NCBI GenBank assembly: GCA_036940085.1
Contig: JALLBK010000026.1
Coordinates: 62,001-126,000 of the forward strand
Length of the DNA stretch: 64,000 nt
Direction of reading: 5' to 3'
DNA from: Discostella pseudostelligera
Lineage: Eukaryota; Bacillariophyta; Thalassiosirophyceae; Thalassiosirales; Thalassiosiraceae
The position numbers were made by a program, and so were the translations under genes. This document shows, one piece after another, positions 13,179 to 20,228 of this stretch (positions are counted from its first letter, which is position 1; each line of letters begins with the position of its first letter). A model generated the notes under the pieces. It made no database searches, had not been told where the DNA came from, and saw only the letters and a list, made by a program, of their open reading frames with translations.

Positions 13179-16100
13179 TCAACCGCCAACATTCACATCG
13201 ACAGTTGGTTGAATTATGAAGAGCTGCAATTCATTATGCCCCGCTTTGTTTCCTCGGGAAACCGCCTGAACGCCCCAATTTTTACTGGTCGTTACCTGCA
13301 GCGCATCCTTTGACCCATGGACACGGGGTAACTTAACTAAATCGTAGCTGTCCTTTGTCAATTGAATTTGTACCTTCACTTCATTTCCCATTGATTGTTC
13401 GTCGTGAAGAATTTCGACCATCGACGCACCGTCGTTTCCTGACACCAAAACGGACACAGGTAAATCGTCTTCAGAGCGACCATCACCCGACATGATGAAG
13501 AGCTCGTTTGGATTCGAGTTTATCACGATGACCCCTTGCGCATGACGATGATTTTCTACTTTTTCCATGAAGCTGCAATCCCCGCGATAGATGATCTGCA
13601 CAAAACGCCTTTCATCATGAACAAAATCGTCCTCTAGTAGTCGAAATCGCTGGCGCTGGTCTACCTGTTGCACGTCATGTGGAGACTCGCACCCTATTTC
13701 GTCGCCAACCGGAGGCGGAACGAGAAGCCCCTGAACAACTTCTCCGCCATGTTGTTGTCTCAAGTTTGACACAGATGCTTTCCCAAACATTGCTGGCGAA
13801 CAAGGAAATTTGGATATATACAAGTCTCTCACTTCGGAGTTCAATGCTTTTGCTTCCTTCTTCGTAATCACAACTTCACATGTGAATGAGTTTGTCTCCA
13901 TGTCCGCCACTATCTCGAGGGACGAGAAACAATAACATTCAGATTCATGCGAGTGTATGAAAGTCAGTTGTATTCAGGTCACTCACCTACAACATGTCGA
14001 TGATATTCGTTGCCAACCAAATTAGGCTCTGAATCGTCTTCAATTGAGTAGTTCACCACGCGACTCCTTGAGAGACGGCCCCAACTGCCGTTCAATGACC
14101 TCCCGAAGAGTTCAATTTTATCTCCCAGATACCGTTTGACGAAAGTAGAGTACTGCTGACGTGTAGGAGGAACTGTCAATACGACCAATGCAAGTCTGCC
14201 TTCAATACCCGGTTTAGGATAGTTGTGAAATAGTGACACCTCAAGAAGCGCTTGTGAATCGAGATGCATTACAACGAAACCGTCACCAGCAGGAAATATG
14301 CTCACGTCGAAAGCGCCAAGACTTCCCCCCATGTCGTAGCGAGTTGCACCAGGAATGATGTCGCTTTGTGAACGGTTCATCTTTGCATTCTCATTGTCAT
14401 CTTGCGTGTCACTAACCGGACAACTTAAGTCGCTGTCTCCCACGATACCGTTAGCATAGAAATCAGTGCCATAAAAACAAGTCGAAAACAATGCAGTGAG
14501 CATTCGTTCATCAATGTCAGCTTTTGGAGACTGGTCGAGCGACAACATAGACCGATACTCTCTAGTACTATAATCCAATGAATCACCATGAAGCGCATGG
14601 GTCCATTGGAGGTCAGGATGATGGTAGTTTGGACATTGTTTACGGAGCCCCTCCATTCCAAGATGATCGAATTGTGAGCGAACTTGATTGATTGCTAAAA
14701 CTTCCGACGAAAGAATCCCAAACGATGCCGTATCAGCCGCTGAAATTAATTCCTTTCGCAAAGCCGGCCCCGACTCTAAGAATACGTCAGACTTTTCCTC
14801 GTGAGTTATTGTTGACTCATTCTGTGGCATTGTTTTGCCGACACTGAACCCATTATCAACAATTGGCAAAGACGAGTTTGAAACGATCTCTTTCAACAGT
14901 GTCCTTACTTGATCAAGTTGTGTGTCTAATCGGTTGTCGCCGACAGCGACCGACTCGACGAAATGAATTGGATGAGCCTCGGTGGTAAATATCCATTCTC
15001 GCTCGTTGTCGTTATGAAGAACGTTGTTGTCGGCGTCAAATGTTAGAAAGAGATATTTTATTGTTTCACTCAAAAAGTATGATGGCATTTCGTTCTGGTG
15101 ACGAGCTTTATACAGTGGCTGAAATGTTTGGGGATCAGTCACAACACTCCCTGTAGTTGTTGGCCCGACATTTGCTACTGTCGCAAACCCACACGGAGTC
15201 CACGACAGTTGATTGACTGCTCTTAACGCGAAGTCGGCCGCCCACAACCAGCTCGAAGTACTATGAGATGAGTTGGCATTGCAGCAAGGGCCACGGGTTG
15301 ATCCATGCAAACCAATCGAAGCAAGATGCAAGAAGTAACTACTCTCAAGTAATTCAGGACGCAACGGATGAATATTTCCAGAGTCTTCGGTCCTCCATCG
15401 AATGAAATCGAAACGCTCAGGCAATAGCCCGAGCAATTCTCTAACCGAAAAGAATGCATTCGCAGTTCTTGCAGATGGTACCATCTCTCCAAGCAATACT
15501 TGCAATCCAGGAAAGAAAGCCATGAGGCTCTCAAAGACATTTCTAACGTGACCGGAAAGTCCTTGGCTCATACCGACGTCCACATACCAACCGCCCACTC
15601 GAGAATGTTGTTGGACGCCAGCGTAGGCAACCGTGAACATTTTCCAGAAATCCGAATCTTCTGGAAACAACAAGTAGTGTTTGATGAGATACTCATAGAA
15701 CGAATCAGAATTCGATCCCACGCCACTAACAATCTCTGTCCACTCGCCGCTATGTACATCAATATGTTTTCCCAAAAGGTCTAACTGTGGCGACCGCCGT
15801 GACCAAAGGGCACGGGTAGCCGACTTTGCGGCTTCCCCAAAGGACCTATCGCCAGTCAGCCTCGACAGTAGTTCGAATTCAAGAGACAGAGAACCGGCTC
15901 CAGCAAGTGAAGCAACTTTGATTAAAAGAACGTGCATGATTAGGCTATGAATCTTGCAAAGGTATCGAGTGATTGAATAACTTTTAATTCCTCACCTGAT
16001 GTTTCGCCTCGAGGAACTCCATTAAGCAAATTGACTGTCCCATATGGAATCTGATTGCAAGTCAAGTAAATGAGCGAATATGCCAGCGAATAGTGATATA

Positions 16101-18077
16101 CAGCAACAATGAAAACGTCCAACTTACTCCAGTTTCAGTATCAAATGCATGCACAAGCCGTTTCCCAACATCATGCGCTAGCACAAGAAGGAACCCATCA
16201 TACTCCCAAGGCGGGGAGGCAATGTCCCTCTCATTATCGTTCTCGTTTGCTCTCCTTCTTGTTGTTGGACAATCCAGTGACTCTAACACACATGCATGGC
16301 TATCGTCATGGCCAACCACCATTCCAGCATCAGTAGAATTCAGAATATCTCCAGACGAATCCCAAACATCTGACTTTGATACACGATTTGTCATGAAGGC
16401 CAATGCCATTTGATGAGCACTCAGTAGCCCCCCAAGGACGCGGATAGTAGTTTCAAAAACGCTAACATTTTGATCAACTGAAAATAAACCACCCGCCTCT
16501 CCTTCTCGAAGACCATTCTTCCTTTTCCTCGCCCCACCTGCACCTCCTTCTTGAGACAATTGAAACTCACGCTTCATCTTCTCATCCAAGTAACGCAGTC
16601 GTTCCACACTTCGCGCAAACTCGGTGTAGTTTCCAAGAATGATGAACGTGTCCAATGTGTCAATTAATGTGAGAGCGGGCACTCGTACCAAGTCGAAGAC
16701 TCCAGGCGAGCAAGTGAGAGGCTTTAATTCGGAAGCAGGAAATGCGTTGTAAAAGTAGGAATCGTAGGCATGAGTAAACATCGATCGGAGAAGTTGCTTA
16801 TTTCCTTCAATCTGAGAGGGAGGCATGGGAGGGAAGGTATCATCGTCGCCAAGAGGATTCCCTTGAAGTAGACTTTGGAGCAAATGACGTATGTCGGATG
16901 GATCAATTGAATGAATTGGTTCCTCAGCGGAAATATCCAATGTTTCAGTTGCATTCTCTTCTCCATGTAGAGAACAAATCTTGCATGCCCTCAATATATA
17001 TTGGCATGGCTTTGGTTCTTCCGCTGATCGAATCATGACCTTTCCGTGATTTTGAAAGAATTCTTCCATCACAGGATGATTATTGCGGTGGCAGCATTCT
17101 TGGTCATAAATCACTTTGCTATGACGCTCCATTGATCCGGTACAAGCATCTCCACCAACGTAATATTCAATGGAATCAGATCGAATCAGTGACGTAGCTT
17201 CGTCATGCCCCCATACCGTAGAGATGTAGGATTCATATTCCGGCGAAAGCGGAGAGAGATACATTCCCAAATCAATAACTGTCGGGAGGAGAAATTGTAT
17301 CTTATCCGAAAGAACTGAGTTCGGTGGAAGTTTCAATATTTCTTCAGCATCATTGTTTGCATTGTGAAGTTTGGCATCCCAATGATCGGTAATAGCAATT
17401 GGCTCCAAATGTATCTGAGATAATGATATCTTGGGACAAAATCTGAAGGTCCAATGCGAGAACCGAGACAGTATACTACTGCCACTAATGCCTTCTTTCT
17501 CTTCGCTTCTGCCCATGTAATTATCTCTTGCATCGAATGAAGATTGCATACCATCATTGTAATATTCACAATCGTCAAAGGCAACGTCAACCGAAGGTAC
17601 TGAACTATTTGTATTCTCATGTTCATGAAGGAGCCTCGCATAGTGTGAGCGAACAGATAGCTCATAGAGTACTTTTCTCCGATTGGGAGTTTCCTCGTTG
17701 CTAGTACTGCGCTCTTTGGAACTGCCCTTCGAAGAATCTAATGCCGTGGTCTGTGAGCTCAGAGTAAGTGTCTGTTGCAAGTTTTGGAGAAACGATGACA
17801 ATGATCCTGATGGGAACTGAAAGTTGTTGATTTTCCTTTCCCCTATCACTGATTTGTCATTATTGAAGTCGGTGGTTTGGATATCATTATTTCCAAGAAT
17901 GGGGAAGATATCTGATAGCTTTAGATATCCACCGCCACCAGCACTATCATCTTCATTTCCTCCCTTGTTCAAAAAACTTTGATTTCCCGACGACGACGCC
18001 GATGCGATCGTCCACAGTTGGGTGGCGCAAAATACTGTTAATGCAGCCAGGGCGAAAAGAAGAAAAGGGATTTTCAT
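13179..18077 (-). CDS. EDEM: EDEM-type GH47 mannosidase with N-terminal MRH lectin domain and C-terminal PA domain
   Basis: Predicted ER mannosidase that trims misfolded glycoproteins for ERAD. Exons: 18077-16128, 16050-15996, 15915-13987 and 13909-13179 (1554 aa, far longer than the roughly 930 aa of EDEM3). Residues 1-30 are a signal peptide or anchor (FLLFALAALTVFC). Residues about 175-370 look like an OS-9/Yos9 MRH lectin domain: W209, Q221 (SLSQIH), Cys312, R318, Cys328, then EEPKPCQY with E354, C358 and Y360. This order matches the four mannose-contacting residues (Q, R, E, Y) of OS-9. GH47 starts near residue 425 (FTHAYDSYFYNAFP). It continues with SVFETTIRVLGGLLSAH, IPYGTVNLLNGVPRGET, EFELLSRLTGD, HPLRPELLESSYF and FTTEAHP. 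The last exon holds a PA domain (QIIYRGDCSFMEKVENH, GVIVINS), as in EDEM3. No KDEL is seen. EDEM identity is secure; the MRH call is by eye. Confidence 0.9.
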
Positions 18078-18575: not shown

Positions 18576-20228
18576 ATGAGCAACGGTATTCCCCCCTCCC
18601 GCACAAGCAGCAGCGGTGGCAGCAGCGGCGATCTCAGCAACTCCCGTATGCTCGACAGCATCACCACCGAGGGTTGGCTCGAACTCTTCCTCAATGCTGC
18701 CGAAAAACGTACCTTCAGTCAATGGAACGAAACCATTCATGACAAATCCCTCACCCACCGAGCTACCAAGAATATATTCGACCAAGTAGCCTCGTTAATT
18801 CCCGAGCATGTCGCACCCAATGTCATTACCGCCGCTGGATTTGCCTGTTTAGGACAGGCATGGTATGTCCAAAATCTATATGGCGCTACCTTCCCCACAG
18901 CATGCACTTGGTTTGCTGTGGCCAATATATTAATCTTCTTCGTGACCAATAGTGTCGATTCACGACATGCTGACCGATTACGACAACGGAGTGCCCTTGG
19001 AGAATTATTCAAATATAGTTGTGATTGCTGTTCGACGGTATTTTTGATTATTTTGGCAACCTATTGTTTGGGTGGGACGAGCAATGTCACCCAGTGGTAT
19101 GCCGTGCAAACAAGTCAATTGGTGCTGTTTACGAAACATTTAAGTGCGTTCCATCGGCATGCGGGAATACGGTACAATGTACTCACTGGACCGGGGGAAG
19201 TAATCCTGTCGGTGGTATTGGTATTGGCACTCCGGGCCATTACTGGTCTCGATTGGCTCGTCCGATTGTACGAAGTTACCTTGCATCGATTTATGTTTCA
19301 CCTCAACGACAAACATGATATTGAAATTCATGATGATATAAAAGACATCATTACCGATCCGTACAAACTTGGACCGGAAATGATTCAGCTTCTCTACGCC
19401 GGCATGTATGTTACGGCATTGGTGAAGACAATATTACTAAAGAAGGAACACAATTGGAGTCGATTCGGGATTATATTTTGCTTGACAATGCGATTCATTC
19501 CGGCAGTCTTTTTGCGATGGGGATTTGATCCCTCCACCTATGGTGTCTCGGCCGTGGATGTGGTAGTCGATGGTATGTTCTTGGCGGTATTGACGAGTGA
19601 TGTCACACTTGCGAAGATGGCAGGGCGCGAGATCCATCCCTGGGTGGTATTAATGTCAAGTGCTGCCGTACTAAGTCATGCAACAATTATTTTCCTCGTC
19701 GTGGTGTACTACATTGCGGTATTTGCCGATTTGTGCTCCTACCTCAATATGCCCTTGATGACGGTATGTCGAAATGTGTATTGCGATGGTGTGTACGATC
19801 TGTGTCACATTGGACACAAGACACTCTTTCGGAATGCGCTACTGTTCGGCAATCGTCTCTTTGTGGGTGTCGTGGGAGACAAGGATGCCTCGGCCTACAA
19901 ACGACCGCCGATAATGACACATGATGAACGATGCGCCGAAGTGGAAGGATGCAAAAGTGTAACGAAGGTCATTCGGAATTGTCCATGCTTTGGATTGACG
20001 AAGGAATTTTTAGACTATCATCAAATACACGTGGTAGCATTTGGAGAGGAGTATCTGGAACGTTATCCCAACCCCGATGATGATCCATACTATTCGGTAC
20101 CGAGAAAAATGGGAATTGCCCGTCCATTGCCTCGAACGAAGGGGTTATCGACGTCGGATCTGATCAAGAGAATTCAAAAGGCAAGGCCAGCCGATGTACG
20201 AAATGACAGCGGTGGCGATTCATCATGA
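18576..20228 (+). CDS. CDP-alcohol phosphotransferase-like membrane domain fused to CCT-type cytidylyltransferase
   Basis: Combines two consecutive Kennedy-pathway folds in one 550-aa chain without introns. Residues about 65-390 are a polytopic membrane domain like choline/ethanolamine phosphotransferases. Its CAPT motif aligns as TNSVDSRHADR followed by LGELFKYSCDC. The family pattern is D-x2-DG-x2-AR-x8-G-x3-D-x3-D. Here Asp1 is N125, Asp2 is D128, Gly is S129, Arg is D133, Asp3 is K146 and Asp4 is D150, so two metal-binding aspartates and the Arg are gone. Residues about 396-530 are a cytidylyltransferase: VYCDGVYDLCHIGHKTLF (HIGH at 411-414) and RTKGLSTS (520-527), both intact, with one catalytic domain as in phosphocholine-type CCT rather than two as in PCYT2. 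Likely product is CDP-choline or CDP-ethanolamine at the ER, with the membrane half perhaps a tether. It could instead keep weak or altered transferase activity. Confidence 0.9.
   Translation: MSNGIPPSRTSSSGGSSGDLSNSRMLDSITTEGWLELFLNAAEKRTFSQWNETIHDKSLTHRATKNIFDQVASLIPEHVAPNVITAAGFACLGQAWYVQNLYGATFPTACTWFAVANILIFFVTNSVDSRHADRLRQRSALGELFKYSCDCCSTVFLIILATYCLGGTSNVTQWYAVQTSQLVLFTKHLSAFHRHAGIRYNVLTGPGEVILSVVLVLALRAITGLDWLVRLYEVTLHRFMFHLNDKHDIEIHDDIKDIITDPYKLGPEMIQLLYAGMYVTALVKTILLKKEHNWSRFGIIFCLTMRFIPAVFLRWGFDPSTYGVSAVDVVVDGMFLAVLTSDVTLAKMAGREIHPWVVLMSSAAVLSHATIIFLVVVYYIAVFADLCSYLNMPLMTVCRNVYCDGVYDLCHIGHKTLFRNALLFGNRLFVGVVGDKDASAYKRPPIMTHDERCAEVEGCKSVTKVIRNCPCFGLTKEFLDYHQIHVVAFGEEYLERYPNPDDDPYYSVPRKMGIARPLPRTKGLSTSDLIKRIQKARPADVRNDSGGDSS

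What the first reader, a model, noticed from the sequence alone, without database searches (positions are those of the whole stretch)
13179..18077. An EDEM mannosidase fused to an OS-9/Yos9-like MRH lectin domain (plus PA domain)
Residues about 175-370, before the GH47 domain, read like a mannose-6-phosphate-receptor-homology domain. W209 is followed by Q221 (SLSQIH), R318 (between Cys312 and Cys328), then E354-P-x-x-C358-x-Y360. These are the four mannose-contacting residue types of OS-9 in the right order and with matching E-P-x-x-C-x-Y spacing. In yeast and animals the trimming enzyme (Htm1/EDEM) and the lectin that reads the trimmed glycan (Yos9/OS-9) are separate proteins. Here writer and reader would be one 1554-aa polypeptide, with a PA domain behind. 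I do not know of a described MRH-GH47-PA protein.
Basis: partly seen in the sequence, partly recalled or inferred. Interest (0 to 1): 0.9.

Follow-up and report, generated by a model that had tools for sequence, protein, structure and literature searches.

The report
Diatom ERAD mannosidase carrying a lectin
In this diatom, and in many others, the enzyme that trims sugars on misfolded proteins to mark them for destruction is joined in one protein to a sugar-reading domain of the kind that in yeast and animals sits in a separate protein.

Summary
Splicing three short introns gives one 1554-residue protein: likely signal peptide, MRH-type lectin domain (about residues 165-370), GH47 mannosidase, weak PA domain. 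The lectin domain and the start of GH47 share one exon. The window's domain alone matches no MRH profile, but its family does: a 15-row diatom profile matches 6 PDB sequences, all ER lectins (erlectin 8.2e-10, OS-9 1e-4). hhalign gives 97% against OS-9/erlectin and 28% against glucosidase II beta. Pfam's PRKCSH passes its cut-off in one relative scanned. The domain is found ahead of GH47 in 100 of 148 proteins, five of them transcriptome-derived by name. All four sugar-contact residues are kept in 85 of 91, the tryptophan in 92 of 92. It looks old in diatoms and lost more than once. Of OS-9's paired tryptophans only the second is present, and the last cysteine is shifted, so this is an MRH domain nearest OS-9/erlectin, not OS-9 itself. 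No separate OS-9 was detected in the genome, by searches of limited power. I found no description in print.

The parts
13179..18077 (-). whole gene, start codon to stop, 4 exons, 1554 aa
16128..18077 (-). exon 1 (residues 1-650): likely signal peptide, MRH domain and first part of GH47 in one uninterrupted frame
17994..18077 (-). hydrophobic N-terminus, likely signal peptide (residues 1-28)
   Evidence: read by eye from the translation; no signal-peptide program used
16968..17585 (-). MRH-type lectin domain, about residues 165-370; cysteines C170, C214, C312, C328, C358, C365; sugar contacts Q221, R318, E354, Y360; W209
14948..16832 (-). GH47 mannosidase domain, about residues 416-991 (interrupted by introns 16127-16051 and 15995-15916)
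   Evidence: Pfam 1.8e-79; PDB mannosidases
15996..16050 (-). exon 2
13987..15915 (-). exon 3: rest of GH47 and region after it
13179..13909 (-). exon 4, holds the PA domain
13425..13601 (-). PA (protease-associated) domain, residues 1415-1473, weak
   Evidence: Pfam 0.0065, below cut-off; over cut-off in four relatives

Best explanation
An ER-lumen EDEM-type alpha-1,2-mannosidase with a built-in MRH lectin. The GH47 domain trims the high-mannose N-glycan of a misfolded protein (inferred from family and intact catalytic acids). The MRH domain, on the same chain and ahead of the enzyme, binds a mannose end of such glycans through Q221, R318, E354 and Y360 (inferred from conservation). The most likely benefit is that enzyme and trimmed product stay together: the lectin holds a glycoprotein that already bears a trimmed arm, which lets the enzyme work on its other glycans and lets the pair be handed to the retrotranslocation machinery as one unit, so the fusion may do the job of a separate OS-9. 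Shown: one gene, domain identity by profile, conservation, wide presence in diatoms. Inferred: ER location, sugar binding, arm specificity, hand-over.
For: MRH identity: profile against PDB, 6 of 6 matched sequences are ER lectins; hhalign 97.2%, E 2.9e-11 over 109 columns against four known ER lectin domains; Pfam PRKCSH in 11 of 33 relatives scanned at E<=1, best 5.7e-8 and over cut-off, and in 3 of 6 others at E<=10; an OS-9/erlectin HMM matches 29 of 148 proteins and 0 of 296 decoys. Function kept: QREY in 85 of 91 with all four columns occupied, W209 92 of 92; of 89 rows with letters in both columns, C170 and C214 are both Cys in 77 and both not in 8. One protein: MRH and GH47 in one exon; transcriptome-named relatives P0004, P0015, P0111, P0122, P0135 carry both. 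Enzyme: E542, D739, E856/E859, E952 and T980 present (their catalytic role recalled from ERManI, aligned stretches). Ligand pathway: ALG3, GT22 matches on two contigs, calreticulin family and DER1 family are in the genome.
Against: The window protein alone gives no MRH hit and scores only 1.9 bits with the OS-9/erlectin HMM, below the best decoy (5.8 bits, P0075 reversed). Only one Trp of the WW pair, which a paper links to alpha-1,6 specificity (PMC3332353 passages). Y360-to-last-Cys spacing is 5 instead of 10. No fold model. Some lineages appear to have lost the domain, so it is dispensable there. The nearest PDB match, erlectin, showed only marginal affinity for M9 in one assay (PMC6272264 passages).
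Confidence: 0.6

Rival explanations
1. The lectin is a substrate clamp, as the MRH of glucosidase II beta is for glucosidase II: it binds an untrimmed arm to raise the enzyme's efficiency and does not read the degradation signal. A separate reader exists or is not needed.
For: [quoted passage not shown] An MRH beside a glycosidase thus has precedent as an activity booster. The first Trp of the WW pair, linked to alpha-1,6 specificity, is absent.
Against: The profile is far nearer OS-9/erlectin (97%) than glucosidase II beta (28%); no separate OS-9 was detected in the genome, by searches of limited power.
Confidence: 0.25
2. A degenerate MRH fold that no longer binds sugar and serves as a protein contact or spacer.
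For: Six of 91 relatives lost two or three pocket residues; proteins without the domain exist.
Against: 85 of 91 keep all four contacts in a domain with 31% mean column identity in 15 rows.
Confidence: 0.12
3. Artefact: two neighbouring genes joined by the gene model, or chance resemblance to MRH.
For: Pfam does not see the domain in the window protein.
Against: Same exon, same order in 100 of 148 proteins, transcriptome-named ORFs, PRKCSH over cut-off together with GH47 in P0024.
Confidence: 0.03

Closest known systems
OS-9 / Yos9 and erlectin (XTP3-B), ER lectins of ERAD
   Same: MRH domain with W, Q, R, E, Y, six cysteines; W-to-C 5, W-to-Q 12, G-to-C 3, E-to-C 4, C-to-Y 2 residues in the window protein as in the four known domains aligned; the six PDB profile matches are ER lectins
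   Different: Covalently joined to the mannosidase; one Trp instead of two (as in erlectin's first MRH, YW); last Cys 7 residues after Cys5 instead of 12; longer stretches between the landmarks; no Hrd3-binding part was looked for
EDEM3 / Htm1(Mnl1) / Chaetomium EDEM
   Same: GH47 followed by a region with a PA domain, as described for CtEDEM (PMC10792529 passages)
   Different: An MRH domain in front; the passages seen of the 2025 Mnl1 paper, which discuss domains of the S. pombe, C. thermophilum and mammalian homologues, name no MRH in them (PMC12170172 passages)
Glucosidase II alpha/beta
   Same: A glycosidase working with an MRH domain on high-mannose glycans
   Different: Two separate subunits, GH31 not GH47 (PMC6272264 passages), different MRH subgroup; this genome has its own beta subunit at C368

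Membership tests
MRH (P-type lectin) domain | four sugar contacts Q, R, E, Y in order | tested here: met
   present in the window; 85 of 91 proteins with the columns occupied
MRH (P-type lectin) domain | six conserved cysteines | tested here: met
   C170, C214, C312, C328, C358, C365 in the window protein; C170/C214 co-occur; disulfide pairing itself recalled, not tested
MRH (P-type lectin) domain | match to curated profile | tested here: inconclusive
   not for the window protein; over cut-off for P0024; below cut-off in P0002, P0003, P0004, P0015, P0122
MRH (P-type lectin) domain | flattened beta-barrel fold | not testable with these tools
   structure prediction busy in 16 tries, then switched off
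OS-9 / Yos9 | double tryptophan WW | tested here: not met
   HW here; the letter before W209 is Y 51, H 25, F 11, E 2, P, M, I one each in 92 rows, never W
OS-9 / Yos9 | Cys5-x11-Cys6 ending P-x-x-C | tested here: not met
   Cys5-to-Cys6 distance 7 in 99 of 99 against 12 in the four known domains aligned
OS-9 / Yos9 | binds SEL1L/Hrd3 and trimmed glycans | not testable with these tools
   needs protein
EDEM (GH47) | GH47 domain with catalytic acids and Ca-site TEAHP | tested here: met
   Pfam 1.8e-79; residues present, roles assigned by aligned stretches and recall
EDEM3-type | PA domain after GH47 | tested here: inconclusive
   17 bits, below 23.9 in the window protein; P0008, P0111, P0122, P0135 above; PA at E<=1 in 32 of 33

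The most novel reading that the evidence does not exclude
Probability: 0.35. Interest if true: 0.85.

Novelty: new variant of a known kind. Interest (0 to 1): 0.72.

Why it matters
Whether EDEM and OS-9 act as one unit is hard to test with separate proteins. A natural fusion kept across many diatoms argues that trimming and reading can belong together, and gives a single protein in which the two can be switched off one at a time. It also suggests that ERAD in a major algal group is wired differently, with natural knock-outs (lineages without the domain) for comparison.

Tried and rejected
Single-sequence searches gave no MRH; only family profiles did. A weak second PRKCSH match in the genome at C937 is a CID/RPR-like protein by eye, rejected. 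The PRKCSH match at C368 is glucosidase II beta (PRKCSH_1 90.6 bits; PDB glucosidase II beta), not OS-9. Genome searches for a separate OS-9 found nothing beyond the window gene, but the human OS-9 and erlectin queries did not find the window gene either, so their silence is weak; the pennate-type query P0028 did find it (E 0.019 and 0.13) and nothing else. The last protein search was meant to look beyond diatoms: 957 matches, only 120 listed, and no listed row carries a name I recognise as non-diatom, so presence outside diatoms is undecided. In one search the column labelled C169 was one residue off; searches give the right one, C170. NCBIfam gave only M36-peptidase models over the PA region of the three relatives scanned. 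Oomycete fusion paper PMC2705460 has none of the five terms searched in its main text.

Full report
What is there. The gene lies on the minus strand, 18077 to 13179. Three short GT/AG introns (16127-16051, 15995-15916, 13986-13910) join four exons into a 1554-residue protein. Pfam finds GH47 at 1.8e-79 and PA at 0.0065, below its cut-off, and no PRKCSH. The N-terminal 416 residues carry a hydrophobic start and the region in question. The first exon runs without interruption from residue 1 to 650, so the candidate lectin domain and the beginning of GH47 are not separate genes in this assembly.

Is the N-terminal domain an MRH? The window sequence alone does not show it: one unrelated match at E 1.2 in the PDB, 1.9 bits with an OS-9/erlectin HMM, less than the best decoy at 5.8. 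Its relatives do. A search with residues 130-400 gave 7 proteins, all with GH47. PRKCSH appears weakly in 3 of 6 of them scanned, over the W-to-Q stretch (0.0034 to 0.05). A full-length profile search gave 89 proteins, two with precomputed PRKCSH (P0024, P0030). Of 33 of these scanned with Pfam, 11 match PRKCSH at E<=1, best 5.7e-8 and 34 bits against a cut-off of 27. A 15-row profile of the domain (A4) matches 6 distinct PDB sequences at E<=10, all ER lectins: erlectin (8.2e-10 and 2.3e-5), OS-9 (1e-4 and 0.013), 'ER quality-control lectin' 6f99 (0.015) and 'Protein OS-9 homolog' 6vk3 (0.1; that this is yeast Yos9 is recalled). Profile-profile comparison gives 97.2% and E 2.9e-11 with four such domains and 27.9% and E 6.4e-4 with glucosidase II beta. 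The reverse search, an HMM of those four domains, matches 29 of 148 proteins at iE<1e-3 and 0 of 296 reversed or shuffled decoys; the glucosidase II beta HMM matches 1 of 148, P0075.

Landmarks. Twelve of the invariant columns of the known lectins (W, C, Q, H, G, C, R, C, E, C, Y, C) correspond to W209, C214, Q221, H223, G309, C312, R318, C328, E354, C358, Y360, C365. H223 is the least kept (H in 36 of 100). Spacings agree for W-C (5 in 90 of 92), W-Q (12 in 72 of 92), G-C (3 in 98 of 98), E-C (4 in 99 of 99) and C-Y (2 in 99 of 99), vary for C-R and R-C, and differ for Cys5-Cys6: 7 in 99 of 99 against 12. The first two cysteines co-occur: of 89 rows with letters in both columns both are Cys in 77, neither in 8, one only in 4, as expected of a disulfide, though related rows count repeatedly. 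The residue before W209 is Y, H or F in 87 of 92 rows and W in none, so the OS-9 WW pair is incomplete; erlectin's first MRH has YW as well. PMC3332353 (passages) relates WW to alpha-1,6-mannose specificity; the arm bound here is therefore open.

How common. Together the three searches gave 147 relatives (one search found 957 and listed 120; the other 837 were not seen). With the A4 HMM, 100 of 148 proteins including ours have the domain at E<1e-3; 15 of these built the profile, so 85 of the 133 others. The best of 148 reversed decoys scores 1.1 bits. The best-scoring stretch ends by the GH47 start in 99 of the 100; in P0018 the two estimates overlap. Of 109 proteins with at least 200 residues ahead of GH47, 94 have it. 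All four contacts are kept in 85 of 91 with the columns occupied; the six exceptions lost two or three. Apart from two animal EDEM2-like proteins without the domain (P0089, P0090), the organism names shown that I can recognise are diatoms; named ones with the domain include Detonula, Skeletonema, Thalassiosira, Cyclotella, Cylindrotheca fusiformis and Nitzschia.

History. In a FastTree of GH47 (125 sequences, 90 with MRH; 23 of 148 dropped beforehand: 10 with MRH for a GH47 piece under 450 residues, 13 without MRH for a short N-terminus or piece) our protein lies among sequences that include Detonula and Thalassiosira. MRH-less proteins form one clade of 7 including Chaetoceros (0.894), one of 23 including Mayamaea (0.967), and three singles, besides the two animal outgroups. 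The sequence that branches first inside the ingroup, P0075 (unnamed), has the domain; I did not see the support for that branch. Presence at the base of the sampled diatoms with later losses is the simplest reading, but some MRH-less entries may be short gene models. Proteins with degenerate contacts (P0054, P0062) lie near the Chaetoceros group. The glycosylation site at residue 116 of Phaeodactylum EDEM 52346 (PMC8678454 passages) lies in a peptide whose counterpart is near residue 537 here, so that gene model starts close to GH47; whether the domain is lost there or the model is short I could not tell.

Same genome. PRKCSH at E<=10 finds only glucosidase II beta (C368) and a spurious hit. 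OS-9, erlectin and diatom MRH queries find nothing besides the window gene, with the limits given under Tried and rejected. ALG3, GT22 matches on two contigs, a calreticulin-family match and seven DER1 matches are present, so parts of the pathway that makes and uses the glycan signal exist.

How it may work. EDEM/Htm1 exposes an alpha-1,6-mannose, OS-9/Yos9 binds it and the protein is recognised by the Hrd1 complex (PMC12170172 and PMC6272264 passages). Here both parts are on one chain. I favour a writer-reader that stays on its product; the main rival is a glucosidase II beta-like clamp that improves catalysis. The conservation of the four contacts argues against a dead fold.

In print. Ten library searches listed no paper whose title or shown start of abstract describes an MRH-GH47 protein; several lists were capped well below the number of matching papers. 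PRKCSH with Glyco_hydro_47 is in 0 papers. Diatom N-glycan papers PMC8678454 and PMC7864949 have no OS-9 in the main text by term search. Most subscription papers and preprints are not held, so this is not proof of absence.

Noticed in passing
L003 (G000 contig C825), 2152-3552 minus: The genome's other GH47 gene, Man I-like by eye, has a Laminin_G_3 (concanavalin A-like) match (24.5 bits, below cut-off 27.6) ahead of GH47 in the same ORF: a second mannosidase with a lectin-like module.
   Followed up: partly
window 18576-20228 +: Divergent neighbour, 550 aa: C-terminal CTP_transf_like (5.9e-13) after a membrane part that reads by eye like a CDP-alcohol phosphotransferase, perhaps a two-step phospholipid enzyme fusion; Pfam did not show the first part at 0.01.
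   Followed up: partly
P0064, P0065, P0068-P0070, P0073, P0074 and a clade of 23 that includes P0145 (Mayamaea): EDEM proteins of Chaetoceros and of the clade with Mayamaea lack the MRH domain though other parts of the N-terminus remain in P0074.
   Followed up: partly
G000, seven places on seven contigs: Seven DER1-family matches, one with a stop inside; perhaps some are plastid-import (SELMA) copies (recalled).
   Followed up: no
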